Origin: a virus
Strand: one strand, 5' to 3'
DNA length: 52,608 bases
IMG/VR virus record: IMGVR_UViG_3300027896_000058
Coordinates: 1-52,608 of that record
The position numbers and the translations under genes are program-made. Below, one piece after another: positions 1 through 21,657 of this stretch. Under the pieces are notes generated by a model. That model saw only the letters and a list, made by a program, of their open reading frames with translations. It had not been told where the DNA came from and searched no databases. Within the stretch, counting starts at the first letter, position 1; each line of letters begins with the position of its first letter.

Positions 1-207
1 GTCGGCCGGCAGGTCAGGGAAGTCAATCGTCTGCGGAACAGGTGCAACCCTATCCGAAGGTGGCGGGGTCTCCAAGGGAACCGGCGCAGGGGCAACAGGG
101 GCCGGAGCCACTGGAGCCGCAGGAGTTACAGGAGGAGGAGTGCTGAGCGGATGGTTCATTATCTTTGCCATCACGCCCTTGTTGAGATCACTTAACTGAT
201 TTGCCAT
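1..207 (-). CDS. Probable scaffolding protein, N-terminal fragment (runs off left edge)
   Basis: The minus-strand frame opens at ATG 205-207, beginning MANQLSDLNKG, behind the purine-rich stretch AAGGTAAAG, and stays open to base 1 (69 codons). After about 18 residues it becomes a Pro/Ala/Val linker. It overlaps the end of the 188-577 gene by 20 nt. Its C-terminal remainder appears to be the ORF entering the right edge (51653-52608), which has a similarly Pro-rich start followed by coiled coil and lies just before the capsid gene, the usual place for a scaffold. The direct join is off by one base. The scaffold role is inferred from position and composition; no catalytic motif is visible. Confidence 0.6.
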   Translation of the reverse strand, partial: MANQLSDLNKGVMAKIMNHPLSTPPPVTPAAPVAPAPVAPAPVPLETPPPSDRVAPVPQTIDFPDLPAD

Positions 208-2914: not shown

Positions 2915-3370
2915 TTAGAATGCTTCTTTCTTTTTCCCGCCTTGGGCGTCGATGGCATCCATTACCAACTTCTTCCTCAACTCGCGTGTTGCGCCGAAGG
3001 GGAACTTGATCTTGATGTCATGGACTCTCATTAATTCCTTCAACTCTTTCGCCTCACTGATGTCTGCCTGCTGAGCCTTCGTGCCTATCTTCGCCTCTGC
3101 GTTTGGCTCCGACTTCTCTGCCGAGGATCCTTCGATCATGCGCCTGACGATACCGGCTATCTGCATGGGCTTGCGCGCCATGTCTGCCTGGAGATCGTCG
3201 ATTGCTGATTCAAACGTCTTGCCCTTACCTGAAGCAGATGTCGCCCAGATGCGACCATCCCTGTCTGCTGTCTCTGACTGCACGAGTACTATCGTTTCTG
3301 CGTCGCTCTCCATGATTGTGACCATGAGAGGAATCTTGAGGTTCGATACTTTGTTGCCGTTCTTTGCCAT
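2915..3370 (-). CDS. Hypothetical protein in packaging operon, KEAF C-terminus
   Basis: 151 aa, starting MAKNGNK behind AAAGGG; an in-frame start 24 nt upstream is possible but has a poorer site. The first 70 residues look like a compact beta-rich domain, followed by a charged linker and a helical end. It ends in KKKEAF immediately before the portal start. The role is unknown. It sits between a Cys-rich protein and the portal and may be a small head or packaging accessory. The terminal EAF recalls several early proteins in this genome. Confidence 0.7.
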   Translation of the reverse strand: MAKNGNKVSNLKIPLMVTIMESDAETIVLVQSETADRDGRIWATSASGKGKTFESAIDDLQADMARKPMQIAGIVRRMIEGSSAEKSEPNAEAKIGTKAQQADISEAKELKELMRVHDIKIKFPFGATRELRKKLVMDAIDAQGGKKKEAF

Positions 3371-3372
3371 TG

Positions 3373-3957
3373 TTATTGCCCTTTCAACCAGCACTTATCG
3401 GGACACTTTGACAAGGCGGCCCCCAACACCTTCGATAGAACTTCTATCTCTGTGAACACCGCGAACTCGTTCATGATCCCTGTGCTTGAACACGCCTGCA
3501 GGTCAGCACTCTGCGGAACAGAACAGCCGGCCATCATCTCCGCCTTGATTGCCCTGACACCACGGCAGGATGAACAGCCAGTAAAAGAAACGTTGTTGGC
3601 GCATGACACGCAGATCTTTGCGCGCCGGATAGCCTCTGTCTTCGATACCTTGGCTCGATCCTTGCCGGCCTTGTAGACTGCAATGGTCCGGTTGACCGTG
3701 TTCGCTGCGAACATATGAGGCCCGCCGGAGAGCCTTGCATTCTCGTCCTCGCAGATCCCGTAAGGCATCTTGGTGCAAAGCCAGTCCTCTACGATGACGG
3801 CCATGTCCTTGACGTCGAGCTTGTTCGCGGATCTGTGAGCAATGACAGCCTTCACAAGATCGCCCATGTTCATCGCATTGAAGTGAAAGCCTGTGTCTTT
3901 GTCTGTGTAGTGGAACGATCCTGGAGGAGCCGTGTTCGTCTTTATTAACTTGAGCAT
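3373..3957 (-). CDS. Cysteine-rich protein with MLKLIKTNTAPPG N-terminus
   Basis: 194 aa. The N-terminal 60 residues (PPG, then a TDKDTG-like turn and HRSANK) resemble a small domain seen in other phage packaging-region proteins. The C-terminal half carries CVSC (116-119), CSSC (128-131), Cys145, Cys156 and a final C-x3-C (184, 188), which suggests one or two metal sites. The start has a good GGAG site. The end of the HNH gene overlaps its first codons in another frame. The first 13 residues are nearly identical to those of the HNH protein upstream although the codons differ. Function unknown; DNA or metal binding is inference. Confidence 0.75.
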   Translation of the reverse strand: MLKLIKTNTAPPGSFHYTDKDTGFHFNAMNMGDLVKAVIAHRSANKLDVKDMAVIVEDWLCTKMPYGICEDENARLSGGPHMFAANTVNRTIAVYKAGKDRAKVSKTEAIRRAKICVSCANNVSFTGCSSCRGVRAIKAEMMAGCSVPQSADLQACSSTGIMNEFAVFTEIEVLSKVLGAALSKCPDKCWLKGQ

Positions 3958-7440: not shown

Positions 7441-7558
7441 CCTTCGTACTGCGGACATGTACACCATCCATTCCTCAATGTTGTTGAGATACAGTACCTC
7501 TTACCAATGCCGACACACTACACCATTCCACGAGGGATGTCAAATCCCCGACACGGAC

Positions 7559-7613
7559 GGACAAATTCAACACGGAATAATTCATTTTGTCCACCGCGTG
7601 ACAAACCTATAAT
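7559..7613 (+). promoter_or_regulatory. Candidate promoter with overlapping inverted repeat
   Basis: A perfect TATAAT at 7608-7613 lies 15-17 nt after the TTTTGTCC segment (7585-7592). That segment is also the right arm of the 7-bp inverted repeat GGACAAA (7559-7565) / TTTGTCC (7586-7592). The -35 match is weak. The layout suits a regulated rightward promoter whose operator covers the -35 region, feeding the 8030-9071 operon. Evidence is motif-level only. Confidence 0.3.
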
Positions 7614-7933
7614 TTCATTGGGGTTTTTGGAAAATTACCAGAGGGAAGCGAAGTCACTGCGAAACCACTTTTCGCTTTCAGCGAAGCCGGTTTTAGCACC
7701 TTTAGTTTTTTAGAGATTTATAATATGAAGCTCGTGGATATATTGATCTATGTGGTGGGTCTTCCCTGTGTGGCTACTGACCCTCCCGGTAGGGTGGGGT
7801 GGGTGGATCGTGTGGGGATAAGCATCCTTTTAATTCCTGCCTTGTGCGTGTGTACCCGCACTCACTACGCTCGTGCTACGTTCTCTGCATCGTGTCCACT
7901 CACACACACTCTACACTAGCACACACGCACATA

Positions 7934-7970
7934 TGCACTCACTTCATATCCCAAGTCTTATGTTCTTTCT
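7934..7970 (+). repeat. Leader repeat, copy A
   Basis: A 37-nt segment containing CACTTCATATCCCAAGTCTT recurs with only a few changes at 10400-10437. Both copies lie 46-60 nt before the first ribosome site of a rightward operon. They are followed by pyrimidine-rich TTCTTTCT tracts. It is probably a shared promoter or 5' leader element; nothing like it is seen before internal genes. Confidence 0.6.
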
Positions 7971-8029
7971 CTTACATCTTCTTTCGGAGATGGGAGCAAG
8001 AGCTAACGCAGTAACTAGGAGTCCAACAC

Positions 8030-8278
8030 ATGAACAACGATACAACCAACACCCAGGACGAACGCGTGCTCTTGATGACAGGCGCACCTGTCGAGTACAA
8101 GACCAAGGCTGGCAAGCCGGGAGTCATCTTCCCGATGTCGTTCAACATCGATGAGCTGATCAAGCTCAAAGGGTCAGGCATGAGCGTAATCGCTCAGGTT
8201 TGCGCGGACGGTAAGTTGAGAATCAACGCTCAGCCAACACGTCAGCGGACAGCAAGTAAGTTCACGTCTGTAGCGTGA
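8030..8278 (+). CDS. Hypothetical early protein
   Basis: 82 aa, with an AGGAG site 12 nt before ATG. The sequence runs from a polar N-terminus to a compact beta-rich core (about 20-65) and a basic end. No family is recognised. It is alone between the leader repeat and a strong terminator (8287-8317), so it forms a single-gene first transcription unit. That suits a strongly expressed early product. Confidence 0.7.
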   Translation: MNNDTTNTQDERVLLMTGAPVEYKTKAGKPGVIFPMSFNIDELIKLKGSGMSVIAQVCADGKLRINAQPTRQRTASKFTSVA

Positions 8279-8286
8279 GAAATCAG

Positions 8287-8317
8287 GGGAGGGAGCACGT
8301 GCTCTCTCCCTTTTTTT
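8287..8317 (+). terminator. Intrinsic terminator after the first early gene
   Basis: GGGAGGGAGCAC (8287-8298) pairs with GTGCTCTCTCCC (8299-8310), a 12-bp stem with one G-T and almost no loop beyond the inner turn. Seven T follow. A textbook rho-independent shape. Confidence 0.85.
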
Positions 8318-8400
8318 GTGAAGGAAATGTGATACCCCTGCTAACTGACGCAGTGGCATTGCGAGCGTATTGGCGTTGCGATTAACTCGGAGGATGTGCG

Positions 8401-8568
8401 ATGAGAACGATTAAGTGGCTGGCTGAGAAGGCGGATGCGAGTGTGGAGGATGTGGTTTGTTACATAACGGCGTTGTGTGTAGGGATACTGAGTGTCTTGT
8501 GTGCGTACGTACTAGGTATGCTTACATGTGACAGTGTATTGGAGTGGATGATGAAGCGTATGGGCTGA
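8401..8568 (+). CDS. Small single-pass membrane protein
   Basis: 55 aa, starting MRTIKWLAEKAD behind CGGAGG. It has an amphipathic N-terminus, one hydrophobic span at about 21-43 with several Cys, and a short Met-rich basic tail. It is first in a three-gene early unit with 8626 and 8811. Small membrane proteins early in phage genomes often act on the host envelope or exclusion, but nothing in the sequence proves a role. Confidence 0.65.
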   Translation: MRTIKWLAEKADASVEDVVCYITALCVGILSVLCAYVLGMLTCDSVLEWMMKRMG

Positions 8569-8625
8569 CGCCCTATTGTTTGGGATGATGGTATACTCCC
8601 GCTTGATGCGGGAAGGGAGGATAGT

Positions 8626-8814
8626 ATGTGGACAGACATCATGTTCAGGACATTGCGAGTGATGAGTTTGACTCCGCGCATGAGTGTGGAGCAAGGCAGG
8701 CTGGCAATGCTTGAGTACGAGAGTAGAGGTGAGCTTGAGTGTGCGGTGGTAGTGCTCAAAGCTCAAGGGTATCGAGTTGAGGATCTGGGCAATGCACTGG
8801 AGGTGAGGGTATGA
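8626..8814 (+). CDS. Small hypothetical early protein
   Basis: 62 aa, starting MWTDIMF behind GGGAGG. It is helical and charged, with an EYESRGELE-type middle and a VEDLGNALEV end. The stop overlaps the next start (ATGA at 8811-8814). Unknown function. Confidence 0.65.
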   Translation: MWTDIMFRTLRVMSLTPRMSVEQGRLAMLEYESRGELECAVVVLKAQGYRVEDLGNALEVRV

Positions 8815-9071
8815 AGTTGTACAAGATTATGCAGCATGAGAACAATGGTCACGACACATACGATTCTGCTGTTGTGATAGCTGAGTCGATGGAGGAAGCG
8901 TGCAACATGCACCCTGATGTAGTTGACTACGATGATCCGACAAGAGATCCGTGGAAGTCGTGGCCTCACTGCTGGGCATCAAGTCCTAAGCATGTGACCG
9001 TTCTTTATTTGGGCGAAGCAGATATAGGGCTCAAGAAAGGGTTCGTGCTGAAGTCGTTCAACGCAGGTTGA
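8811..9071 (+). CDS. Hypothetical early protein
   Basis: 86 aa, starting MKLYKIMQHEN. It reads as a short alpha/beta protein rich in Trp/His/Asp around 35-60 (DPTRDPWKSWPHCW). It is coupled to the upstream gene by the ATGA overlap and closed 6 nt later by a terminator. I do not recognise the family. Confidence 0.65.
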   Translation: MKLYKIMQHENNGHDTYDSAVVIAESMEEACNMHPDVVDYDDPTRDPWKSWPHCWASSPKHVTVLYLGEADIGLKKGFVLKSFNAG

Positions 9072-9077
9072 AACAGA

Positions 9078-9110
9078 GGGAGATGGGCAAGTGCCTGTCT
9101 CCCTTTTTTT
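9078..9110 (+). terminator. Intrinsic terminator closing the 8401-9071 operon
   Basis: GGGAGA-T-GGGCA (9078-9089) pairs with TGCCT-G-TCTCCC (9092-9103), followed by seven T (9104-9110). On the minus strand the same hairpin has a weaker T tract, so it may partly stop leftward transcription from 9212-9778. Confidence 0.85.
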
Positions 9111-9211
9111 GTGATCATGCTACAGAACCTCTAAATGGCTCTAGGATCGATTATCTCTCTCGAACCATGTCTTCGTACAGGTCAGGGGGAGATTGTCAAT
9201 TCTAGGGGCAA

Positions 9212-9778
9212 TCAGAAGGCTTCTTCGTCGGCTGGTGAGGCAGGTGTTGGCACATCACTGAAGTCATGGCATTCGATGGGCTTATTGCCTGAATTGTGCG
9301 TCCGGTCCGGGATTGGCTGGACGTTGAGCTGGAAGAACATTGGGTTCTTGGGTATGTCATCGTGGTGCTGTTGACGATTCGAGTCCTGACGGCGCTGGAC
9401 GATGAGCGTCTTGGACACGGCATGGCTGGACTTGATGGCATTGACGAGGGCAGTGAGTTCTTTGATGCTCTCGGTGTCCTTGAGTTTGCCTCTGAGCTTG
9501 CCGACTGCTTCTGCGAGTGCATCGAGTTCCCTCCGGTGATTGTCGATACTGACTTCCTGGTTGGCTGATAGCTTCTGATCAATGCGAGACATGCCTCGAT
9601 TGATCATGGCTATGCGCTTATCGTTCCACCGTTCAACGCGCATCCAGTTCTTGAGCGTGTTGAGTGGTGTGCCTGCTTCCTTAGCGATCTCACTGCACTT
9701 CTTGTCAGTGGTCATGTAGAGATCGTATGCTTTGACTTTGACTGCTGGGTTGATGTGACGGTTTTGTGTCTTGCTCAT
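9212..9778 (-). CDS. Terminase small subunit-like HTH protein
   Basis: 188 aa, beginning MSKTQNRHINPAVK. Residues about 10-50 fit the helix-turn-helix of small terminases and DUF1804-like proteins (AYDLYMTT, EIAKEAGTPLNTLKNW, then W-ND-KR). Residues 70-115 are a helical oligomerisation-type segment. The tail is Pro/His-rich and ends ADEEAF. It is the only minus-strand gene in this stretch and lies away from the large terminase. The ribosome site is weak, and the frame stays open upstream without a better start. It could instead be a transcriptional regulator. Confidence 0.5.
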   Translation of the reverse strand: MSKTQNRHINPAVKVKAYDLYMTTDKKCSEIAKEAGTPLNTLKNWMRVERWNDKRIAMINRGMSRIDQKLSANQEVSIDNHRRELDALAEAVGKLRGKLKDTESIKELTALVNAIKSSHAVSKTLIVQRRQDSNRQQHHDDIPKNPMFFQLNVQPIPDRTHNSGNKPIECHDFSDVPTPASPADEEAF

Positions 9779-11843: not shown

Positions 11844-13433
11844 ATGAATCAGACACTCAGCACAGTCGAAGTCGATCAGATCGAAACCAAGTTCAACAAT
11901 CCTCGCAAGAACACAAAGGCAGATGCAGAACTGATTGAGTCAGTTCGTCAGTTCGGTGTACGAATTCCGCCCATCGTTACAAATGGCGGAGCAAAAGGAA
12001 AAGAGTACCAGCTCGTAGCAGGTGCTCGTCGCCTTAATGCGGCGATTGCAACTGGACTTCAGACGATCACGGTCATGGTTGTGGACGGTACTCCAGAAGA
12101 GATCTTTGAGTTCACGCTTTGCGAGAATGCAAATCGCAAGAGTCTCACCGTGTTTGAACAGGTGGATGCAGTGAACACGCTGATGAAGATCATCGGAGAC
12201 ATGGATCTCGTTGCAGAGAGATTGTCCATGACAGTTCCGGAGCTTCGTCGCTTGTTGCTTGTGAACAAGATCTCGAAAGGAATCAAACAGTTGATCATCG
12301 AGAATGACGGAGTATTCGCTACGTTGTCGTTGAACTGCCTGGCAGTCATCGCGGCATTGCCCGAGGATCAACAGCAGGATCTGTTTGAGTCTTGGACGTA
12401 CGATGCTCCGGAGAACATCACGGTCAAGTCGTTGAAAGAGTATCTCAACAATAGGTACAGGTTCGATCTGTCCGGTGCGAAGTGGGCTCTTGAAGATGAT
12501 GCGCTTGGTGGTATTGAAGCATGCACAACATGCAAGAAGCAGACTGGCAATGCAAAGCAGGCTGTTCTCTTCGATGAAGATGCGAAGTCAAAGAAAGGCG
12601 TGTGCATGGATCCTGAGTGCTGGAAGAAGAAGACAATCGCGTTCGCGAAGTTGATGGTCGATTCTCACATGACTGCAAATGCAGATTCAGTGATCGTTGA
12701 CTACACAGGCAAGATCAAAAAAGATGCGAGCTACCTTCCGGCAAAGTTCACGAAGGACGAAAAGGGTAAGATCAGCGTGATCGAAGTCGGACGTGATGGC
12801 CAGGTGAAGACGTACAAAGCGAAACTTGAGAAAGGTGAGAAGCTCGATGCTGGCAAGAAGAAGTCAGAAACAATAGACAAGACCAAGCAGTTGCATGGTC
12901 TTCGCATCGGAATCGTGCTCAAGAAAATGCAGGAGTATCTGATCACTCCGGCAGCAGCTTCATATGTCATGGACACTGCAACGACTTCATCGCTTACCGC
13001 GTTGTCCGTGATGAACAGGCAACAGCAGGTTCAATTCAACGAGCCTGATAAGGCGCATGAGGATCTTACCGACGGTAAAGATGTTCTGTTCTCTGTCGGA
13101 TACGGTGGAGAAGAGATCAAGGGTAGCATCGAAGCGGTTCTTTGGCATCAGACAAAGAATTCTTTGGCTGACAACCTGGGATTCAGCAACAGTTCAACAG
13201 CGGCGAATCGCGAGGACTATGCGCAATGGCTGGCAACGTACACAGGCTTCAAGTTCGATGATGCTTTCAGGGAAGCAAAGATCGAGAAGCCTGATCCGAA
13301 AGTGAAGGAAGTTGCTGAAGTGGATCCGAAGCTTGGAAAGGAAAAGATCAAAGCTGAGAAGAAGTCGAAGAAGCCTGCAAAGAAAGTGGACAAGATCAAG
13401 AAAGGAACAGTGACAGACGCAGCTCCGTTCTGA
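11844..13433 (+). CDS. ParB-like nuclease/partition-domain protein
   Basis: 529 aa. Residues 1-90 form a ParB N-terminal (Srx-like) fold with NPRKNT (19-24) and GARR (60-63) in the nucleotide-binding position. An HTH segment lies at about 115-150. Next is a Cys pair CTTC (227-230) with CMDPEC (254-259), a putative zinc finger seen in phage and plasmid ParB-like proteins. The C-terminal 60 residues are Lys-rich and end TDAAPF. No parA partner is present, so plasmid-style partition is unlikely. A DNA-binding or modulating role in early transcription or replication is more plausible. Family certain, role inferred. Confidence 0.85.
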   Translation: MNQTLSTVEVDQIETKFNNPRKNTKADAELIESVRQFGVRIPPIVTNGGAKGKEYQLVAGARRLNAAIATGLQTITVMVVDGTPEEIFEFTLCENANRKSLTVFEQVDAVNTLMKIIGDMDLVAERLSMTVPELRRLLLVNKISKGIKQLIIENDGVFATLSLNCLAVIAALPEDQQQDLFESWTYDAPENITVKSLKEYLNNRYRFDLSGAKWALEDDALGGIEACTTCKKQTGNAKQAVLFDEDAKSKKGVCMDPECWKKKTIAFAKLMVDSHMTANADSVIVDYTGKIKKDASYLPAKFTKDEKGKISVIEVGRDGQVKTYKAKLEKGEKLDAGKKKSETIDKTKQLHGLRIGIVLKKMQEYLITPAAASYVMDTATTSSLTALSVMNRQQQVQFNEPDKAHEDLTDGKDVLFSVGYGGEEIKGSIEAVLWHQTKNSLADNLGFSNSSTAANREDYAQWLATYTGFKFDDAFREAKIEKPDPKVKEVAEVDPKLGKEKIKAEKKSKKPAKKVDKIKKGTVTDAAPF

Positions 13434-13445
13434 ATGTCATAAACT

Positions 13446-13464
13446 AATGGGATAATATCCCATT
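13446..13464. promoter_or_regulatory. 19-bp perfect palindrome
   Basis: AATGGGATA-A-TATCCCATT, 9-bp arms around one base, 13 nt after the ParB-like stop. It is a good candidate for a dimeric repressor site. The neighbouring winged-helix protein or the ParB-like protein could be the reader. Confidence 0.5.
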
Positions 13465-13470
13465 GACGAA

Positions 13471-13500
13471 ACCTCTTCGGCCATGGTCGAAGGGTCTTTC
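13471..13500 (+). terminator. Hairpin after the ParB-like gene
   Basis: ACC-T-CTTCGGCC pairs with GGTCGAAGGGT (11 pairs, one G-T, one bulge) and is followed by CTTTC. A strong stem with a weak T tail, so a leaky terminator is likely. Confidence 0.55.
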
Positions 13501-13558
13501 AGTAATGCGCTATCTGAAACTGATGAGTCTTGCGCATGCAGTAAACAAGGAGAGTGCC

Positions 13559-13987
13559 ATGAGTATATGTTCACGACACAATACAAGCAAATGCCCGGGC
13601 GCATACGCGCAATGTGAAAAGTTCTGTTCTGTCTTTCAAGCAATCAACGTGCTCGATAAGGTTCGCGAAGAACCTCCGATTGCACGCAACACGGATCCTG
13701 AGTCCTCGCACATCGCGGCGAAGGACATCAAAGATTCTGGAAGACAGATGATGCAACAGATCGAGTGCTTGTACTTGGTCAGAGAGTTCCCAGGATTAAC
13801 GTCCAGAGAACTTGCTGAGAAAAAAGGTGCAGATCGTTACATGTTCTCTCGCAGATTGCCTGAGCTTGAACGAAACGGCATGGTAGAACGCGCAAGGAAT
13901 CCGGACGGAAGTTTTCTTCTACGAGTATGCAATGTCGGTGGAAAGAAATCCTGCGTTTGGTTCCCGAAGGGGGTTGACGGTCAGTAA
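13559..13987 (+). CDS. Winged-helix DNA-binding protein
   Basis: 142 aa from MSICSRHN, chosen for its AAGGAG site over a longer frame starting at 13463. The first 25 residues hold four Cys (C-x6-C-x6-C-x3-C), and the centre has the SSHIAAKDI pattern common in phage HTH proteins. Residues about 75-125 form a MarR-like winged helix (LTSRELAEKKG, RLPELERNGMV). Likely a transcription regulator or replication accessory. A palindrome lies 95 nt upstream. Confidence 0.75.
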   Translation: MSICSRHNTSKCPGAYAQCEKFCSVFQAINVLDKVREEPPIARNTDPESSHIAAKDIKDSGRQMMQQIECLYLVREFPGLTSRELAEKKGADRYMFSRRLPELERNGMVERARNPDGSFLLRVCNVGGKKSCVWFPKGVDGQ

Positions 13988-14014
13988 CAAATTCGATACA
14001 GCAAAGGAGGGTCA

Positions 14015-14524
14015 GTGAAGAGATTAATTGAAACACAAAGAACAAGGATAAGAGATCAACTTTCATGGATACGAGTCTCAGATCCAGATTGCGTCCTCGC
14101 AAAGAGGCGCGTCTGGATCAACGAGGAAGCATCCACGAAGACGGTTTCGATACACGATGAAAACGACACGCTTTTCATTCGCTACAATCGCAACTTTGTT
14201 CAGAAGCTTTCTGGAAAAGACATATATCATGTACTTATTCATGAAGCCGAACACATCAAGCGATGCCATTCAGATAGATGCGGACATATTGTTGAACTGC
14301 TATCGAAAGAAGAGATCGTTCGGATGTTCAACATCGGAGCGGATCTTGAAATCAACCAAGAAATAAAGTGTCTTGGTAATGCAGTTCAAGTCGGAAAGGG
14401 AACATACGACAAGTATCAGGCAGGATTAACAGCAGAACAGTATTTCGTCTGCGTCTTGCATGATAGAATCGAACACGAGAAAGTAAAGGAGTCGTTGAAA
14501 TGCGCAAGAAAACCAAGCAAATAA
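14015..14524 (+). CDS. DUF2201-like putative metallopeptidase
   Basis: 169 aa from GTG behind AAAGGAGG. HEAEH at 76-80, His85 and Arg88, then NIGADLEINQ at 106-115, reproduce the HExxH plus (N)xxADxxxNQ pattern of the DUF2201 N-terminal metallopeptidase family. The full-length family usually continues into a VWA-like domain, which is absent here. Zinc and catalytic residues are intact, so it could be active. The target is unknown; an early-expressed protease might act on a host protein. Confidence 0.75.
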   Translation: MKRLIETQRTRIRDQLSWIRVSDPDCVLAKRRVWINEEASTKTVSIHDENDTLFIRYNRNFVQKLSGKDIYHVLIHEAEHIKRCHSDRCGHIVELLSKEEIVRMFNIGADLEINQEIKCLGNAVQVGKGTYDKYQAGLTAEQYFVCVLHDRIEHEKVKESLKCARKPSK

Positions 14525-14682
14525 CATTCACAAAAAAAGACTGTATCTTTTTGATGACAGTGGCAGCTGCATCTGCTTTGGATACAGCAGAAGAGGTTGG
14601 AATTCCTCCTGATGTAATTAGAAAAGATGCAGCAGAAATCACTGCAAAATTAGTAATGAAACTTTTCAAGGAAGGAGTATAA
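14500..14682 (+). CDS. Small hypothetical protein
   Basis: 60 aa, AAAGGAG site. A basic N-terminus is followed by an Ala-rich helix (MTVAAASALDTAEE) and a second helix (DAAEITAKLVMKLF). It overlaps the metallopeptidase by 25 nt and abuts the nuclease start, so it sits in one tightly packed operon. No recognised family. Confidence 0.65.
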   Translation: MRKKTKQITFTKKDCIFLMTVAAASALDTAEEVGIPPDVIRKDAAEITAKLVMKLFKEGV

Positions 14683-15600
14683 ATGCCTCAGTACACAAAC
14701 AAGAAACAGCTCAGTGCGAGCTGGCTCAAAGCGGCAAAGACCAGCAACGAAGAATACAACAAAGTAGGCTGGCATTCGGTCACGACATTGATTGATTCTC
14801 CTCGGGCAAAGTTGCTCGCTGAGCGTCATGACAGTGAGATCTCAGTGGACATAAGCGATTCGATATTCCAGATCTTGGGTTCAGCAGTTCACAAGATTTT
14901 GGAGTTGTCGGCAGAGCCGAACGTCATCACCGAGCAACGGATAATCTTTCCAGTACTCAGAAAGGAAGTAAGCATGAAGGCAGACCGGATCGAGCCGGTT
15001 CCAGGCACGCTTCCTCGTCAGTACATCGGGAAAGATTACAAGATCACAAAGGTCTGGGCGTGGCGCTACGGAGCCAAGCCTGCCCAGATCGCACAGGCGA
15101 ACTGTTACAGGTTCGGGTATTCGCGCGAAATGAAGTTGGACATACGCGCATGGTATCTCGAAATGCTTCTGAGAGATTGGAGTCCTCTCGAAGCAAAGAA
15201 AGGTGGAGAACAATATCCAGATGCAGAAGTCATGTCAGTGCAGGTTCCGTTGTGGGATCTGCCGATGACAGCAAGGTATCTGAAAGATCGAGTCAAGTTG
15301 TTCATGGAATGCGAGGATCTGGCAGATGATGATCTGCCTGAGTGCAATCCAGAAGAGACATGGCAACGTCCCGACAGCTGGGCGTTTCAGAAGAGAGGAG
15401 CAGCACGCGCAAGTCGTGTGTTGAGCACGAAGGAAGAAGCAGATGCGATGCTTGCAGGAAAGAGTGGGACACATGAAGTTGTGTTCCGGCCGGGGTCTTG
15501 TCCTCGGTGTGAAGAGTACTGCAACGCAAAGAAGTTCTGCAATCAGTGGAAACGATACGCAGGTATCAAGGAAGAAAAGACAGAAGAGGAGGCGTTCTAA
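14683..15600 (+). CDS. PD-(D/E)XK exonuclease, Cas4/RecB-like
   Basis: 305 aa. His70 in GSAVHK, Glu84 after a strand, Asp101 and Asp118-Tyr-Lys120 form the expected H, E, D, (D/E)xK series of RecB/Cas4-type nucleases. Four Cys near the C-terminus (CPRCEEYC ... FC, about 273-286) could hold the iron-sulfur cluster seen in Cas4 and AddB; the usual fourth N-terminal Cys is missing. It lies next to an SSB-like-tailed protein and ERF, so it probably supplies 3' overhangs for annealing. The C-terminus reads EEEAF, and its codons also form the next gene's ribosome site. Confidence 0.75.
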   Translation: MPQYTNKKQLSASWLKAAKTSNEEYNKVGWHSVTTLIDSPRAKLLAERHDSEISVDISDSIFQILGSAVHKILELSAEPNVITEQRIIFPVLRKEVSMKADRIEPVPGTLPRQYIGKDYKITKVWAWRYGAKPAQIAQANCYRFGYSREMKLDIRAWYLEMLLRDWSPLEAKKGGEQYPDAEVMSVQVPLWDLPMTARYLKDRVKLFMECEDLADDDLPECNPEETWQRPDSWAFQKRGAARASRVLSTKEEADAMLAGKSGTHEVVFRPGSCPRCEEYCNAKKFCNQWKRYAGIKEEKTEEEAF

Positions 15601-16154
15601 TGGCATGTTCAGAAGCATACAAGAAGAAGATCATCGCTCTATACAAGATCCGAAAGGAAATTGAAGAGTCTGGTGACAGGTGGGCATCGAGGGAATACGC
15701 GGGCAAGGGAACGGAAGCAGGTTTCATCCAGAAGCAGTACTTCTGGAACATCGAGAAGCCAAACGACCGTGACATGTCTGACAAGCAGAAGGCAGTGATA
15801 GACCAACTGGTTGCTCAGTACATCACTGGCAATCCGAACACAGTGCCATCTGTCGAGGACGATCCGATACCAGACGATCCGATTCCTTCCGATACTGAGG
15901 TTTTGAATTGGCTCAACGGAGTCTCTGCAAAACCAACAGATGAAGGATGGGTCATCTACATCAACGACATCCAGGCAGGATTCCCGTTGACGTTGATTCA
16001 CGCCAAAGTTGTTGGCGACTGGTTGCATCGCAGTGTCGAGTACATGATGCTTGCGATGAAGTACGCTGACAAGTTCAAGGACAAGTTGCCCCCTCGGACA
16101 ACAGAAGATCCAGCGGACTCGGAAGCAGTAGTGAGCGAAGATGAACCGTTCTAG
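15600..16154 (+). CDS. Possible single-strand DNA-binding protein, acidic PF tail
   Basis: 184 aa, start fixed by GAGGAGG and a TAATG overlap with the nuclease. The N-terminal half is basic and aromatic, and the centre is Pro/Asp-rich. A compact WVIYINDIQAG segment (about 118-130) is followed by helices. The last 17 residues are strongly acidic and end SEDEPF, like the C-terminal tip of bacterial SSB. With exonuclease upstream and ERF two genes downstream, an SSB or mediator role fits. The OB fold is not demonstrable by eye, so the call is inferential. Confidence 0.45.
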   Translation: MACSEAYKKKIIALYKIRKEIEESGDRWASREYAGKGTEAGFIQKQYFWNIEKPNDRDMSDKQKAVIDQLVAQYITGNPNTVPSVEDDPIPDDPIPSDTEVLNWLNGVSAKPTDEGWVIYINDIQAGFPLTLIHAKVVGDWLHRSVEYMMLAMKYADKFKDKLPPRTTEDPADSEAVVSEDEPF

Positions 16155-16163
16155 GAGGATGGC

Positions 16164-16349
16164 ATGACAAAGAAGAGATCAGTTCTGAATGGACACGACA
16201 TGTTGCAAGCGTTGAACAACTTCAAGATCAAGGCTCAGGCCGACAACTTGAAGACAGGGTTCAATGCAAATGAAGTCGGAGTTCATGAGTTCGATGACGG
16301 AAGCAAGATCAGCGTAAGCGTGGTAGCGTGGTTTGAGAAAAAGCAGTAA
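16164..16349 (+). CDS. Small hypothetical protein in recombination operon
   Basis: 61 aa with GGAGG 6 nt upstream. Basic N-terminus, a short helix, then beta-prone GVHEFDDGSKISVSVVAWF. No family recognised. It is co-transcribed with ERF and the nuclease. Confidence 0.65.
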   Translation: MTKKRSVLNGHDMLQALNNFKIKAQADNLKTGFNANEVGVHEFDDGSKISVSVVAWFEKKQ

Positions 16350-16368
16350 CAAGAAAGGTATAGCGGCT

Positions 16369-17283
16369 ATGGCACAGATACATGAAGCAATGATCGAGAT
16401 CACAAGGGACGTTCAGGCAATCGGCAAAGACAGTCAGAACGTGACACAGGGATTCAAGTTCCGAGGGATCGACGCAGTGATGAACGAACTGCATCCGATC
16501 TTCGCCAAGCATGGCGTGGTGATCCTTCCCGAAGTCGTGGAAGACCGGACAGAAGAACGGCAGGCGCGCAACGGTGGCAACCTGATATACCGGATCCTCA
16601 AGACTCGGTTTCATTTCGTTGCAGCTGATGGCTCGGAGATCTCCTCGGTGATCCTGTCGGAAGGCATGGACTCGGGAGACAAGGCAGTCAACAAGGCGCT
16701 GGCAGTGGGACTCAAGTACGCCCTCACCCAGATGCTCCTGTTGCCCTATGATGAGGTGGATCCGGACTCGGAAAGCCATGATGTGGCGCCCAAGGGTCAG
16801 GTAAAGCAGCCTCAGAAGGCTCAGGAACCTGCTAAAACAGCTCCAGCAGCCCCTAAAACGGCTCCAAAAGCTCAGGGAGGTACAAAGACCGCCCCCCCTG
16901 CAACAAAACCGGTTGTAGAGGCTCCTAGGGCCATAGAAACGCCAAAGGACGACCTGGACATGGGAAAGCCGGTTGACAGGCCGAACATGAGCCCGCCCAA
17001 GGCAGCGGACAAGGGTGAGAAGATCGTGAACGTGGTCAATGGCAAGGCGACAGAGGTCAAGCCTCCCTACGGCCTGCCGAACACAGGTTCACCGATCATC
17101 AGCGCCGGCACGAAGGCGAAGATCATAGCCGCATTCGCGAAGCACAACATCGCAGAACAGTGGTTGATGACCTACTCAGGGTTCCCTGTCGATCAGTGGA
17201 CAGAGGACATGAAGGTGTACGCCCTGGCAGATTACAAGGCGCTTGAAGGTGGCATGAAGCCGATCGACATCTTCGGGTCGTAG
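16369..17283 (+). CDS. erf: ERF-family single-strand annealing protein
   Basis: 304 aa. Residues 1-135 carry the ERF fold: FKFRGIDAVMNELHPIFAKHGV early, and the SSVILSEGMDSGDKAVNKALAV-type core at about 92-114, ending in KYALTQMLLLP. A long Pro/Ala/Lys/Thr linker (about 140-225) joins it to a C-terminal helical domain (230-304). It anneals complementary strands during phage recombination and late replication. The start at MAQIHE has AAAGG; a 12-codon longer frame has none. A terminator follows the stop. Confidence 0.9.
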   Translation: MAQIHEAMIEITRDVQAIGKDSQNVTQGFKFRGIDAVMNELHPIFAKHGVVILPEVVEDRTEERQARNGGNLIYRILKTRFHFVAADGSEISSVILSEGMDSGDKAVNKALAVGLKYALTQMLLLPYDEVDPDSESHDVAPKGQVKQPQKAQEPAKTAPAAPKTAPKAQGGTKTAPPATKPVVEAPRAIETPKDDLDMGKPVDRPNMSPPKAADKGEKIVNVVNGKATEVKPPYGLPNTGSPIISAGTKAKIIAAFAKHNIAEQWLMTYSGFPVDQWTEDMKVYALADYKALEGGMKPIDIFGS

Positions 17284-17290
17284 CAAATAG

Positions 17291-17324
17291 GGGCGGGAGG
17301 GCGTTCCTCTCGCCCTTTTCTTTT
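17291..17324 (+). terminator. Intrinsic terminator after ERF
   Basis: GGGCGGGAGG (17291-17300), loop GCGTT, CCTCTCGCCC (17306-17315) with one G-T, followed by TTTTCTTTT. Good rho-independent form. The helicase operon downstream must then be read through or have its own start. Confidence 0.8.
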
Positions 17325-17325
17325 C

Positions 17326-17505
17326 ATGAAAACGAAATTTCACATCTGTTCGGACTCAGGAATTCACAGGCTTTGTGTCGCGTGCTTCCACTCGGAAGAT
17401 CATGTGAAGTGCGAGAACAAAGACGACTTCGGAACTTGTGCTGATGGTCACTGGTGCAAGCTCATGAAGAAAGAACAAACCTGCAACTGCATCGAAATAG
17501 AATAG
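17326..17505 (+). CDS. Small cysteine/histidine-rich protein
   Basis: 59 aa from ATG 17326. It has nine Cys/His in possible metal pairs (C-x2-C, C-x5-C, C-x-C), which is zinc-ribbon-like. There is no ribosome site because the ATG directly follows the terminator tail, so the start is uncertain or leaderless. The frame ends 10 nt before the helicase. Confidence 0.5.
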   Translation: MKTKFHICSDSGIHRLCVACFHSEDHVKCENKDDFGTCADGHWCKLMKKEQTCNCIEIE

Positions 17506-17515
17506 GGGAAAAACA

Positions 17516-18868
17516 ATGGATGTCATATTAACTGACTTTACATACGCTCCGGAAGCGGAGTCGTACGTCATTGGCGCGCTGCTCAAGGATCCGTTCAAAA
17601 CAATCACAGCAATCGAGACTCTCGGTTGCACACAGGAATGGTTTCAGAAACCAGCATTCATCCGAGTGTTTGAAGCAGCAATGCTTCTTCGCACAGCAGG
17701 ACAGCCAATCGAGATAGATACGATCATCGACAGCTTGAAGCAGAGAAAGCTCTGGACTCTCGTAGGAACTGAGTGCTTGCACAATGCACAGACTTCCTGC
17801 CGGTCATCACATAATGCTTCGGCATATATCCAGATGCTTCGTGACAGGTATCTCAAGCGAGAGATCCTTCAGCAGATAGAGAAAGCGTCGGACATGGTGA
17901 ACAGTGAAACATCTGGACTCGATTGCTTGAGCCAGATCCGGTTCAATCTTTCGACGGTAGACAAAGTCCTGTCGAAGAAGAACTCGGTCAAAGACATAAT
18001 CAGATCAGTAGAGGACAAATACACAAATGCCCAAACTTCAAAATCAGTTGGCATCTCTTCCAGATGGTTATCCTTACAAGCAGTTTTGTGCGGATATATC
18101 GAAGGTAAGATGTCAATCGTCGCAAGTCGTCCGGGACAAGGTAAGACGACACACGGATGCAACGAAATGTACGGATGCATCAATCGTCCTACGCCTGTAC
18201 CTTGCGGGATTGTAAGCATGGAGATGACGGAGGAAGAGATCAGGGAGAAGCTCGCTGCGGATGCTCTCGACATTGATCTCAAGTACTTCCGTCAAGGTCG
18301 TGCTTCAAACGCTCAGATCATTGAGCTGGCAAACAAGATCGAGGATCATTCAAAGGAACCGATCTTCATCTCGGAAGGCAACAAGACAATCGACCAGGTT
18401 GGCATCACGCTGCGAGATATGGCTTCAGATGGATGCAAGTTCGTAGTCATCGACTACATCCAGCGGATCAAAGCGCGTGAGCGTGAATCAAAAGGAGAAC
18501 GTGAACGATATGCAAACTACTCAAACGAGTTGTGCAATCTCGCAAACGAAACAGGGATGCACGTTATGGCGCTCTGCCAGTTGCGCAGGGAAGCTGAGTT
18601 CGATCTACATGATAAGAGGATCTTGCCTCGTATGGAGCATCTTAAGGGGTCAGGTGACTTCGAGCAAGATGCTCACCAGATCGTTCTTATCGGCAGGGCG
18701 ATCACGCTGCAGGGTGATCAAGAGATGTCCGACAATCAGCCGATGGTTATCAAGGTTAGCAAGAATAGGAACGGAGGCTTGTCTTCGGGCCTCGACTTCG
18801 TGTTTGCGAAGTCTCGTCAAAAACTGATGCCGCAAGCGTTGTTTCAAGAAAGTGAAGGAGGGTTTTAA
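17516..18868 (+). CDS. Replicative DNA helicase, DnaB family
   Basis: 450 aa. N-terminal helical domain (about 5-110; EAESYVIGALL, FIRVFEAA), linker helix near 150-170, RecA-like ATPase with Walker A SRPGQGKTT (204-212), SMEM (234-237), Walker B FVVIDYIQ (309-316) and a sensor region at MALCQLRR (about 348). Normal length and complete motifs. It would unwind the phage fork as a hexamer. No primase or loader was recognised, so host DnaG and perhaps host loading are implied. C-terminus ESEGGF. Confidence 0.93.
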   Translation: MDVILTDFTYAPEAESYVIGALLKDPFKTITAIETLGCTQEWFQKPAFIRVFEAAMLLRTAGQPIEIDTIIDSLKQRKLWTLVGTECLHNAQTSCRSSHNASAYIQMLRDRYLKREILQQIEKASDMVNSETSGLDCLSQIRFNLSTVDKVLSKKNSVKDIIRSVEDKYTNAQTSKSVGISSRWLSLQAVLCGYIEGKMSIVASRPGQGKTTHGCNEMYGCINRPTPVPCGIVSMEMTEEEIREKLAADALDIDLKYFRQGRASNAQIIELANKIEDHSKEPIFISEGNKTIDQVGITLRDMASDGCKFVVIDYIQRIKARERESKGERERYANYSNELCNLANETGMHVMALCQLRREAEFDLHDKRILPRMEHLKGSGDFEQDAHQIVLIGRAITLQGDQEMSDNQPMVIKVSKNRNGGLSSGLDFVFAKSRQKLMPQALFQESEGGF

Positions 18869-19042
18869 ATGAAGACAGAATGTAGATGGACTCGTGACAA
18901 TGACGGTATCTATCACACAGCATGCGGACAAGCATGGGAATATCCCGATGGCACGAGATTAGAAAACAAGCAGTATTTTTGCCACTACTGCGGGAAGATC
19001 ATAAATGATTCCAGTGAATCTGCTCAGGAGAAGATTAAATGA
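18869..19042 (+). CDS. Small zinc-ribbon-like protein
   Basis: 57 aa, GGAGG site. Cys5, Cys18, then FCHYCGK near 40-46, the C/W-rich pattern of many tiny phage zinc-ribbon proteins. It begins ATGAAGACAGAA like three later neighbours. The end overlaps the next start (AAATGA). Confidence 0.65.
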   Translation: MKTECRWTRDNDGIYHTACGQAWEYPDGTRLENKQYFCHYCGKIINDSSESAQEKIK

Positions 19043-19209
19043 AAACAGAAGAAAGATACATTGACCTAAAAGCACGGATCAAAACATTGATAGCGATGGC
19101 CAGAGACTGCGAAGAGCAAGTCGTCCCGGTCACGGTACTGCAAGGCACGATTGATCATGTTGAGGGATTGGAATCAATCCCATCAGCCGTGGAGGAGGTG
19201 GAGAAGTGA
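19039..19209 (+). CDS. Small helical protein
   Basis: 56 aa, starting MKTEERYIDLK. Two helices with a Val/Pro break. It overlaps both neighbours by 4 nt. The upstream site is weak and it may depend on coupling. Unknown function. Confidence 0.6.
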   Translation: MKTEERYIDLKARIKTLIAMARDCEEQVVPVTVLQGTIDHVEGLESIPSAVEEVEK

Positions 19210-19406
19210 ATATAGACACTTGGTACGCAAAACTTATTGAACTGGCAAAGGCCCAAAACTTAGAGGGTATTCTGGCCGACAAAGAAGAATACGAGTCCAG
19301 TTATTTTGCAGATGGTTACACGCCAGAAGATACACTGAGCGAAGAGATAAGTTACTGCGATTTTGACGCAACACTTGAGGAGGTCTCCAATGAAAATCAC
19401 GGTTAA
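19206..19406 (+). CDS. Small acidic protein
   Basis: 66 aa from GTG behind GGAGGAGG. Strongly acidic C-terminal half (EDTLSEEISYCDFD). Acidic small early phage proteins can mimic DNA or bind polymerase, but no motif proves that. Confidence 0.6.
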   Translation: MNIDTWYAKLIELAKAQNLEGILADKEEYESSYFADGYTPEDTLSEEISYCDFDATLEEVSNENHG

Positions 19407-19587
19407 ACTTAATGTGCCAAACGTATGCATGGGGCGTATATTTAAATGCCGATTCTGCTATGAGTTAGATCCGATGAACTCAATTGTGGGTACGGCTACT
19501 AGGTGTATTTTATTTGATACCGTCACAAATAACAAGAAACCTTGCCCCGCTTGCCTTGCTGCCCGTAAAGATGCGGAGGGGAAATGA
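19390..19587 (+). CDS. Small four-cysteine protein
   Basis: 65 aa from MKITVKLN, GAGGAGG site. CRFC (about 18-21), one central Cys, then CPAC near 54-57, a zinc-ribbon layout. It overlaps the upstream acidic-protein gene by 17 nt. Confidence 0.65.
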   Translation: MKITVKLNVPNVCMGRIFKCRFCYELDPMNSIVGTATRCILFDTVTNNKKPCPACLAARKDAEGK

Positions 19588-19733
19588 GTGTTGGAGATCC
19601 ACGCATAGACGCATTCCACGCACACTTGGATAAGTGCGAGAAATGCAGAAACAACCCTATGGACTTATGCCCAGAAGGTCACGCTCTTATAATTGCAGTG
19701 GTTGGCGAAGAAGCAAAAGCGAAGGAGATTTAA
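19584..19733 (+). CDS. Small CxxC protein
   Basis: 49 aa with an ATGA overlap upstream and TAATG downstream, GGAGG site. CEKC followed by C-PEGH gives a possible zinc knuckle (FHAHLDKCEKC). Unknown role. Confidence 0.6.
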   Translation: MSVGDPRIDAFHAHLDKCEKCRNNPMDLCPEGHALIIAVVGEEAKAKEI

Positions 19734-19900
19734 TGAAAACAGAAACGATAAACGTAATTTGTTGGTGGATCGTAATAATCATACTGACACTTGCTAGCGT
19801 TATTTGCGGAGTACTTGGCAGGAATGATCCCGGTATTACGTTCTTTGTTATTGCCGCACTGATGTTCGTGTTCACAAATCCTGCATGGAGAGATCAATGA
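19733..19900 (+). CDS. Small two-span membrane protein
   Basis: 55 aa, starting MKTETINVICWW, AAGGAG site. Two hydrophobic helices (about 6-27 and 32-49) separated by GRNDPG, ending WRDQ. A member of the packed early block. It might be a holin-like or envelope-acting peptide, though the lysis genes lie elsewhere. Confidence 0.65.
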   Translation: MKTETINVICWWIVIIILTLASVICGVLGRNDPGITFFVIAALMFVFTNPAWRDQ

Positions 19901-20310
19901 AAACAGAAGAGAGGGTTGCGCGGCTGGTGAAAGGGGGGGCTATGACCTGCCACGAATGCGGTCAGACATTCAGTAAGCTTCAGATGACAACTCAAACAAC
20001 ATACGAAGGGACGTTCAACCGTTGCCTTATCTGCGCAGACAAAGCACTTGAACGTGCATTCGCACATCACAACGAACAACAAAACAAAGGAGTAAGAGTT
20101 CATGCAAAAGTTGCAACTGCCGATGACAAGAAGATCTCTAACCCACAAAGTAAAGATCCACGCGGAGGATGGTCCGGTGACGATCTATTTCACGGTGGGA
20201 CTACAGGAGAACGGACAGCCGGCAGAGTTGTTCATCAAGGAGGACAAGGAAGGCGCGAGCCTGGGGGGCATGTTAAAGTCTTGGGCCCTTGCGGTGTCGA
20301 TGCTTTTTAG
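19897..20310 (+). CDS. Zinc-ribbon protein with an out-of-frame extension
   Basis: 137 aa from MKTEERVARL. Residues 18-50 hold CHEC and CLIC, a clear zinc ribbon. After about residue 68 the frame runs on over the 20102-20467 gene for 209 nt as a Gly-rich shadow-like tail. A TAA one base out of frame lies just before that gene's start (GGAG-TAA-GAG), so the natural product may be about 67 aa and a base may be missing or added. The first half is real; the tail is doubtful. Confidence 0.55.
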   Translation: MKTEERVARLVKGGAMTCHECGQTFSKLQMTTQTTYEGTFNRCLICADKALERAFAHHNEQQNKGVRVHAKVATADDKKISNPQSKDPRGGWSGDDLFHGGTTGERTAGRVVHQGGQGRREPGGHVKVLGPCGVDAF

Positions 20311-20467
20311 AGCTGGATACACTGTCGAGGATCTGTTCAGCAAGTTCGCATTCATCCGTCATCAACCTGCAGGGTTCACGGAGGATCCGTACATTCGCAA
20401 CTGTACGTCGATTGAGGATTACGTTATGCGGTGGATGAAAAATCAGTTCGTAAAGGAGGTAGTATGA
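20102..20467 (+). CDS. Orphan TSCPD-type ribonucleotide reductase C-terminal domain
   Basis: 121 aa, AAAGGAG site. The pattern KVKIHAEDGPVTIYFTVG, ELFIKEDKEGA, GGMLKSWALAVSMLFRAG, FAFIRHQPAGFTEDP, then SIEDYVMRW follows the domain found at the end of vitamin-B12-dependent ribonucleotide reductases. No reductase catalytic gene is in the genome. It may bind or tune host reductase or nucleotides, or be a repurposed small-molecule domain. Family confidence is good, function inferred. Confidence 0.75.
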   Translation: MQKLQLPMTRRSLTHKVKIHAEDGPVTIYFTVGLQENGQPAELFIKEDKEGASLGGMLKSWALAVSMLFRAGYTVEDLFSKFAFIRHQPAGFTEDPYIRNCTSIEDYVMRWMKNQFVKEVV

Positions 20468-20679
20468 AAAGAATGTATGTCGTTCAAGCGTTGGTGAAGG
20501 AAAAAGATGTTGAATCTTACGGGCCGATGATGCCTGTATTCATTCCTTCAAAGATTAAACTGCAATGGGCCGACGGAATGATTGGTGTCCTTCCTGTATT
20601 CTCAAACGAGAAAGATGCAAAGAAGTATGCAGGGAAGAAGTTCTCGATTGCTAAATGCGAAGAAAGGCAGGTGGAGTGA
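20464..20679 (+). CDS. Small hypothetical protein
   Basis: 71 aa from MKRMYVVQAL, AAAGGAGG site. A beta-rich start, Pro-rich middle and a charged helix (SNEKDAKKYAGKK) resemble a small alpha/beta modulator. No recognised family. Confidence 0.6.
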   Translation: MKRMYVVQALVKEKDVESYGPMMPVFIPSKIKLQWADGMIGVLPVFSNEKDAKKYAGKKFSIAKCEERQVE

Positions 20680-20894
20680 TGATAACGAAATGCAAGTGCG
20701 GTCAGGAAATAATCTGGATCAAAACAGCGGCAGGAAGAAACCATCCAATAAACGCAAAGGCTTCAAAACTCTGGGTGAAGGACGAAGACTCCATGGCCTA
20801 CTCACTGGCTGATTGCCATGAGTCTCACTTCACAACGTGTCCAAACGCGGACGAGTTCAGAAAGAAGCCAGTAGCAAAACAGGAGGCATTCTAA
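20679..20894 (+). CDS. Small zinc-ribbon protein, KQEAF C-terminus
   Basis: 71 aa. CKCGQ at residues 4-8, then Cys-x8-Cys near 47-56, consistent with one metal site. TGATG overlap upstream. It ends AKQEAF, and the codons of that tail plus stop form the next gene's ribosome site and start (AGGAGGCATTCTAATGGC). Confidence 0.65.
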   Translation: MITKCKCGQEIIWIKTAAGRNHPINAKASKLWVKDEDSMAYSLADCHESHFTTCPNADEFRKKPVAKQEAF

Positions 20895-21208
20895 TGGCAC
20901 GACGTGGACGAATACATTACACCACTGAGAAGAAGTTGGAATTTGTAAGAAAGCATCTTCAAGTTCTTTTCGAGAGAAGAAGAAGATACGAAGAAGTAGT
21001 TCCAGGACTCATCGGAAGAGAAAGGGATATTGCAGAGTGTGATGTTCTTCACCTTAATGAAAGCATCAAAGAGTCTGAAAGAAATATCAACGTTCTTGAG
21101 AAAGAACTCGGTGAAGAGAAAGCTCGCAAGTCTCTTGACGAGAAACTTGGATTCGATAGAAAAGAAATTAAGGAACCAGAGAAGCAATACTGGTGGAGGT
21201 GGTTCTAA
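20894..21208 (+). CDS. Coiled-coil protein
   Basis: 104 aa, starting MARRGRIHYTTEKK. Residues 15-85 are an almost continuous charged helix with heptad-like Leu/Ile spacing. The end is Trp-rich (QYWWRWF). Site GGAGG. It might be a small structural or host-interaction factor. Unknown family. Confidence 0.65.
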   Translation: MARRGRIHYTTEKKLEFVRKHLQVLFERRRRYEEVVPGLIGRERDIAECDVLHLNESIKESERNINVLEKELGEEKARKSLDEKLGFDRKEIKEPEKQYWWRWF

Positions 21209-21657
21209 TGGCAACAGTTGAATGGACGCAAGAACAGGTGGATGAGTACAAGAAACGTACAGGCAGATCAGTGAACATCATGGGCAAGTCAGGATACGTC
21301 ATTGTAGATACTCCACCACAACAGCCTGCAGTCAAACCGAAGTGCAAGCTCACGAAGACTGAGATCGAGTACGAGAAGATCTATCTCAAGAACTTCGATC
21401 ACAAGTTCGAGGGCATGACTCTCAAGATGGAGAACGGGCATAGGTACACGCCAGATTACTTCGTGTACCAGAAACCAACCATCAACAATAACATGGAGTC
21501 ATGGATCGAGCTTCACGAAGTCAAGGGCTCGTACAAGCTCGGCTCGTATCACAGAGCAAAGCTGGCGTTCGATCAGGCAGCAGTGGAGTATCCGATGTTC
21601 AAGTTCGTGTGGGCAGAAAAACGTAAAGATGGTACATGGAAAATAACAAGGAGGTAG
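21208..21657 (+). CDS. DUF1064-like PD-(D/E)XK endonuclease
   Basis: 149 aa. After an N-terminal 45-residue lead, the family pattern appears: KTEIEYEKIYL, HRYTPDYFV (Asp83), ELHEVKG (Glu104-x-Lys106), then an RAKLAFDQAA helix and YPMFKFVWAEK. These are the metal-binding and catalytic residues of a Holliday-junction or T7-endonuclease-I-like fold. It may resolve branched replication or packaging DNA. Confidence 0.8.
   Translation: MATVEWTQEQVDEYKKRTGRSVNIMGKSGYVIVDTPPQQPAVKPKCKLTKTEIEYEKIYLKNFDHKFEGMTLKMENGHRYTPDYFVYQKPTINNNMESWIELHEVKGSYKLGSYHRAKLAFDQAAVEYPMFKFVWAEKRKDGTWKITRR

What the first reader, a model, noticed from the sequence alone, without database searches (positions are those of the whole stretch)
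11844..20894. Shared (E/D)-x-(A/P)-F C-terminal tip on unrelated proteins
The ParB-like protein ends DAAPF, the PD-(D/E)XK nuclease EEEAF, the 15600 protein SEDEPF, and the 20679 zinc protein KQEAF. Outside this block the terminase-small-like protein ends DEEAF and the 2915 protein KKEAF. Acidic residues ending in Pro-Phe or Ala-Phe resemble the SSB C-terminal tip that docks host repair and replication enzymes, so the phage may use a common address tag. A competing explanation is that GAG-GAG-GC encodes the next gene's Shine-Dalgarno. But the ParB-like and 9212 genes have no gene directly behind them and still keep the tip.
Basis: partly seen in the sequence, partly recalled or inferred. Interest (0 to 1): 0.62.

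Follow-up and report, generated by a model that had tools for sequence, protein, structure and literature searches.

The report
Shared phage protein ends, mixed origin
Six proteins of a little-known phage do end in nearly the same few amino acids, but two of these endings come from a repeated ribosome-binding DNA cassette, and only one to three look like a real docking tip of the kind carried by single-stranded-DNA-binding proteins.

Summary
The six C-termini are real. Acid-[AP]F ends are 7 of 60 window ORFs (one ORF, 19885, dubious) against 0.08 expected from internal positions; 27 other virus records have 0-2 each. Searching for any final dipeptide weakens this: 30 of 5000 shuffles match the AF excess. 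The set has mixed origins. (1) The exonuclease (EEEAF) and zinc protein (KQEAF) ends are encoded by a DNA cassette, GGAGG-N2/3-TTCTAATGGC, that holds the Shine-Dalgarno and start of the next gene. It occurs three times, expected 0.00; the third copy encodes WRWF, keeping DNA and F but not the tip. Homologues lack both tips: 0 of 88 exonucleases, 0 of 5 zinc proteins. (2) Three tips have no such cause: 15600 SEDEPF, ParB-like DAAPF, terminase-small-like DEEAF. SEDEPF, between exonuclease and Erf annealase, is the best SSB-type candidate. (3) The 2915 tip KKEAF abuts the next start. A genome-wide address tag is not shown. Tips shared by unlike proteins are real elsewhere: T7 gp2.5 and gp4, and in other viruses SSB, primase-helicase and some Ref nucleases.

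The parts
15600..16154 (+). 184-aa protein of unknown family between exonuclease and Erf annealase; acidic tail ending SEDEPF, best SSB-type tip candidate
   Evidence: no PHROG/Pfam hit; Shine-Dalgarno of the next gene lies after its stop
14683..15600 (+). PD-(D/E)XK exonuclease (phrog_2139), tail ending EEEAF
   Evidence: 0 of 88 homologues carry the tip
15588..15604 (+). initiation cassette copy 1, GGAGGCGTTCTAATGGC: end of exonuclease gene and start of 15600 gene
20882..20898 (+). initiation cassette copy 2, GGAGGCATTCTAATGGC: end of zinc protein gene and start of next gene
21195..21212 (+). initiation cassette copy 3, GGAGGTGGTTCTAATGGC; protein end is WRWF, not a tip
20679..20894 (+). small zinc-ribbon-like protein (phrog_5984) with added C-terminal PVAKQEAF
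11844..13433 (+). ParB-like protein (ParB_N; some plasmid relatives annotated PRTRC ParB), ends DAAPF, no gene starts at its stop
9212..9778 (-). terminase-small/DNA-binding-like protein, proline-containing tail ending ADEEAF, no gene directly behind
2915..3394 (-). unknown protein ending KKEAF; stop directly abuts the start of the portal-sized gene 590-2914
17516..18868 (+).
16333..17283 (+). Erf-type ssDNA annealing protein, no tip (ends DIFGS)
19885..20310 (+). dubious ORF ending GVDAF, overlaps ORF 20102-20467

Best explanation
The shared ends have more than one cause. In the exonuclease and the zinc protein, the reading frame runs into the translation-initiation cassette of the next gene (GGAGG, short spacer, TTCTAATGGC). 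That DNA happens to encode E-A-F, so the end is probably a by-product (cassette and tip-less homologues: shown; by-product: inferred). The 2915 end abuts the next start and may be a weaker case. The 15600 protein, between exonuclease and annealase, most likely carries a genuine SSB-type tip, an acidic, probably disordered tail ending P-F, that docks on a host or phage replication or recombination enzyme (inferred from motif and position). The ParB-like and terminase-small-like ends may be of the same kind or coincidence.
For: Cassette GGAGGN{2,6}TTCTAATGGC: 3 places, all at gene junctions, 0.00 expected; third copy gives WRWF. TTCTAATGGC is in 1 of the 183 loci fetched. Exonuclease: 0 of 80 IMG/VR and 0 of 8 phage homologues end [AP]F. 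Zinc protein: 5 of 5 homologues read end by about FRKK, the window adds PVAKQEAF. Three tips are not coupled to a following start. 15600 lies in an exonuclease-15600-Erf-DnaB block. Acidic tail plus F: 4 window ORFs against 0.26 expected: exonuclease, 15600, DnaB-like, terminase-small-like.
Against: Elsewhere coupling does not make F ends (5 of 376), so the cassette itself might be kept partly for its residues. Over the whole set, different Ala/Pro codons and different stops encode the same end, which fits selection on the protein. 15600 has E, not a hydrophobic residue, before PF. Its fold model failed (pLDDT 36.6), so it is not shown to be an SSB or SSB-like.
Confidence: 0.55

Rival explanations
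1. Common address tag: one receptor pocket (host RecO, ExoI, PriA or PolIII chi type, or an unseen phage protein) binds the E-[A/P]-F tips of all or most of the six proteins and gathers them at replication or packaging sites.
For: 7 of 60 against 0.08 expected; window has the most acid-[AP]F and acidic-F ends of the 28 records; different codons for the same residues. Precedent for tips shared by unlike proteins: T7 gp2.5 DEDGDF and gp4 SNDTDF (gp4 tail docks on gp5 and its terminal Phe matters, PMC12593628 and PMC12230644, passages); SSB 37 of 39 and primase-helicase 43 of 49 end in F in other viruses.
Against: Two tips are encoded by a repeated initiation cassette; homologues of three families lack the tip; the 2915 tail is basic (KKKEAF); look-elsewhere test 30 of 5000; no SSB gene (PF00436) and no receptor found.
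Confidence: 0.2
2. Pure coincidence plus initiation-site coding: no tip has a docking function.
For: Final dipeptides about as skewed occur in two of the 27 other viruses (IV in W06, AA in G024); strictly canonical acid+PF ends are 2, as in four other records; homologues lack the tips.
Against: Three uncoupled tips where fewer than 0.1 are expected for all ORFs; SEDEPF resembles known phage SSB tails such as HK620 NDYPPF (PMC5928155, passages).
Confidence: 0.2
3. The F-ended tails serve another C-terminal reader, such as a protease or a packaging or assembly partner, not an SSB pocket.
For: Terminase-small-like and portal-adjacent proteins also carry the end.
Against: 0 of 21 ORFs of the late block carry it against 7 of 39 elsewhere (Fisher P 0.08); I know of no such reader for E-A-F (recalled, not searched).
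Confidence: 0.05

Closest known systems
Bacterial SSB C-terminal tip (SSB-Ct, E. coli DDDIPF)
   Same: acidic residues, Pro or Ala before a terminal Phe, at the end of a probably disordered tail (15600, 9212)
   Different: no SSB domain; the residue before PF/AF is E or A, not hydrophobic; four of the six tips have Ala instead of Pro
T7 gp2.5 and gp4 tails (DEDGDF, SNDTDF)
   Same: unlike proteins of one phage share an acidic tail with terminal Phe
   Different: T7 has two such proteins with a known receptor (gp5); here up to six with none known
HK620 SSB tail NDYPPF binding Sak4
   Same: phage recombination block with a P-F-ended acidic tail
   Different: the HK620 protein is a true SSB; 15600 is not recognisable as one
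Translational coupling with Shine-Dalgarno inside the upstream gene
   Same: exonuclease and zinc protein ends hold GGAGG and overlap the next start (TAATG)
   Different: the 17-18 base cassette is repeated three times in this genome

Membership tests
SSB (PF00436) | SSB OB-fold domain in the record | tested here: not met
   no match in the record; the same search rings in 10 of 14 control genomes
SSB (PF00436) | 15600 protein is an SSB-like OB fold | tested here: inconclusive
   no PHROG, Pfam or PDB sequence hit; model pLDDT 36.6
SSB-Ct type tip | acidic tail with hydrophobic-Pro-Phe end | tested here: inconclusive
   15600 SEDEPF lacks only the hydrophobic residue; the EAF tips lack that and Pro
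SSB-Ct type tip | binding to a RecO/ExoI/PriA-type pocket | not testable with these tools
   no complex modelling or binding assay available
Shine-Dalgarno-coded end | tip codons hold the next gene's Shine-Dalgarno and start | tested here: met
   met for 14683 and 20679 only; not for 9212, 11844, 15600
phrog_2139 exonuclease | family match and PD-(D/E)XK-type residues and fold | tested here: met
   E 4.9e-43; invariant D101, D118, K120; Foldseek top 4ic1 SSO0001, E 1.1e-7
Erf annealase | PF04404 match of neighbour 16333-17283 | tested here: met
   E 5.1e-20

The most novel reading that the evidence does not exclude
A phage has spread one E-[A/P]-F docking tip over exonuclease, 15600 protein, ParB-like, terminase-small-like and (as ESEGGF) DnaB-like proteins, so that one pocket gathers resection, partition, unwinding and packaging proteins; the initiation cassette would be a cheap way to add the tip to a gene upstream of a coupled gene.
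Probability: 0.18. Interest if true: 0.65.

Novelty: new member of a known kind. Interest (0 to 1): 0.32.

Why it matters
It shows that a look-alike protein tip can arise from initiation-site DNA, and how to separate the two. If the uncoupled tips are real, phages use SSB-type tips on more protein classes than SSB and helicase. The survey of other viruses (SSB, primase-helicase, some Ref nucleases) makes that testable now.

Tried and rejected
Close relatives: single-protein scans of IMG/VR with exonuclease, ParB-like, portal-like, terminase-small-like and 2915 proteins found none; the one hit for 15600 (L001, 40% over 35 residues) I judged not a homologue. Both genome scans found none. tblastn of 15600, 9212, portal-like and capsid-like proteins in phage records: no match. 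SSB identity of 15600: not shown. Shine-Dalgarno as the general cause: rejected (5 of 376 coupled genes elsewhere end F), but kept for two tips. Circular completeness: the ends seem to carry the two parts of one gene, in different frames, and no exact end repeat of 11-200 bases was found, so the record is probably nearly complete, not proven. Gene lists come from a simple longest-ORF choice without a trained gene caller; it misses some genes (for example the DDDIPF protein of MinM2, absent). Records were cut at 20 kb borders and genes across borders were lost; the last bases of four of the 27 records (G015, G025, G026, W03) were not taken. Papers: passages only of PMC5928155, PMC12593628, PMC12230644 and PMC12817073; all others only search listings. 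Searches of the paper library for phage proteins with SSB-like tips showed no report of a multi-protein tip of this kind in their listings; this is not proof of absence.

Full report
What was checked. The window is a 52,608-base virus record. A seventh ORF, 19885-20310, ends GVDAF, but it overlaps ORF 20102-20467 and is dubious.

More than chance? With the motif fixed as an acid within the four residues before A or P, then F, 7 of 60 longest-choice ORFs match against 0.08 expected from internal positions of the same proteins. In 20,000 shuffles of the last 40 residues none exceeded 3. In 27 other virus records (1851 ORFs) there are 18 such ends, at most 2 per record, and only one -AF end. These 27 were chosen because they gave loci here (relatives by the exonuclease or the ParB-like protein), not at random. 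When the motif is not fixed beforehand, the picture is weaker: without the dubious ORF, AF is 4 against 0.19, and 30 of 5000 shuffles have some final dipeptide as extreme. One of the 27 other viruses beats it (W06, IV) and another nearly equals it (G024, AA). Strictly canonical acid+PF ends are 2 in the window, as in four other records. Acidic tail plus F, whatever precedes F: 4 in the window against 0.26 expected, others 0 to 3. These four are exonuclease, 15600, DnaB-like helicase and terminase-small-like protein.

What the genes are. 14683-15600 is an exonuclease of phrog_2139 (E 4.9e-43); one relative is annotated N4 gp42-like. Its model, made with 25 of the 80 IMG/VR homologues, has mean pLDDT 92 with the last block at 68, and the best solved match is SSO0001, 4ic1, a Cas4 protein by my recollection. 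16333-17283 is an Erf annealase and 17516-18868 a DnaB-like helicase. 11844-13433 has a ParB N-terminal domain, with some plasmid relatives annotated PRTRC ParB. 9212 matches a DNA-binding family and, weakly, a terminase small subunit. 20679-20894 matches phrog_5984, function unknown; I call it a zinc protein from its Cys pattern. 15600 and 2915 have no family (only a weak 0.093 for 2915).

The DNA explanation. The DNA at the ends of the exonuclease and zinc protein is nearly identical: GGAGGCGTTCTAATGGC and GGAGGCATTCTAATGGC. It holds a Shine-Dalgarno and an ATG that overlaps the stop (TAATG). The pattern GGAGGN{2,6}TTCTAATGGC occurs three times in the window, 0.00 expected, always at a gene junction. 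The third copy (21195-21212) ends a protein in WRWF: the DNA and the F are kept, the tip is not. TTCTAATGGC is found in 1 of the 183 loci fetched. So for two proteins the residues follow from initiation DNA. The 2915 stop (GAAGCATTCTAAATG) abuts the next start and may be a weaker case. As a general cause this fails: in the other viruses 5 of 376 coupled genes end F and 3 of 376 end [AP]F.

Homologues. None of 80 IMG/VR exonuclease homologues nor 8 from named phages ends in [AP]F; 2 of the 88 end in F. By eye, most stop about 8 to 13 residues after the last conserved Cys and a few run to about 20; the window protein has 19, ending YAGIKEEKTEEEAF. Five of five zinc-protein homologues read (3 IMG/VR, 2 of 48 phage records matched) end by about FRKK; the window adds PVAKQEAF. 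Six of six ParB-like homologues read (of 53 phage and 1003 plasmid records matched) lack the tip, at about 24-33% identity over about half the protein, so this test is weak. No relative was found for 15600, 9212 or 2915.

What remains. Three tips have no gene starting at their stop: 9212 DEEAF, 11844 DAAPF, 15600 SEDEPF. For 15600 the next gene's Shine-Dalgarno lies after the stop. This protein sits between exonuclease and Erf and ends in an acidic tail. It has no SSB domain that can be recognised, and its structure could not be modelled. I take it as the best candidate for a working SSB-type tip, by inference only.

Precedent. T7 gp2.5 and gp4 end DEDGDF and SNDTDF. The gp4 tail docks on basic patches of gp5 and its terminal Phe matters (PMC12593628 and PMC12230644, passages). 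The HK620 SSB needs its last six residues, NDYPPF, to bring in Sak4 (PMC5928155, passages). A DnaB-like helicase in G016 ends DEGVPF. Thus tips shared by unlike proteins of one phage do exist; the question is only whether this window is such a case.

Verdict. A single tag on all six proteins is not supported: two ends follow from an initiation cassette, one is doubtful, and three are open, with SEDEPF the most likely real tip.

Noticed in passing
L012, L013, L016, L023, L048, L086 and others: In other environmental viruses, SSB together with primase-helicase, or SSB together with Ref RecA-dependent nuclease, carry acidic-PF tips in the same virus; tips on Ref did not appear in the papers and listings seen.
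   Followed up: partly
window 15588-15604, 20882-20898, 21195-21212: A 17-18 base translation-initiation cassette repeated three times at gene junctions.
   Followed up: yes
window 17516-18868: DnaB-like helicase ends ESEGGF, an acidic tail with terminal Phe like T7 gp4; its end also holds the next gene's Shine-Dalgarno.
   Followed up: partly
window 19885-20467: ORFs 19885-20310 and 20102-20467 overlap by 209 bases in different frames; the second reads like a TSCPD-type domain by eye, so the first ORF's end is doubtful.
   Followed up: no
window 1-187 and 51653-52606: The two record ends seem to carry the halves of one proline-rich scaffold-like gene in different frames, so the record is probably a nearly complete genome with a small gap or trimmed overlap.
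   Followed up: partly
L002:4990-5547: Synechococcus phage MinM2 protein annotated as transcription termination factor Rho ends NDDDIPF and lies beside exonuclease and Erf; it may be an SSB (no Pfam match).
   Followed up: no
L182 (phage D6E): The homologue of the zinc protein is unannotated and lies about 300 bases behind an SSB gene that ends DDFDNLPF, which may link this small family to ssDNA metabolism.
   Followed up: no
window 7500-9200: Stretch without convincing genes, apparently rich in CAC/ACA.
   Followed up: no
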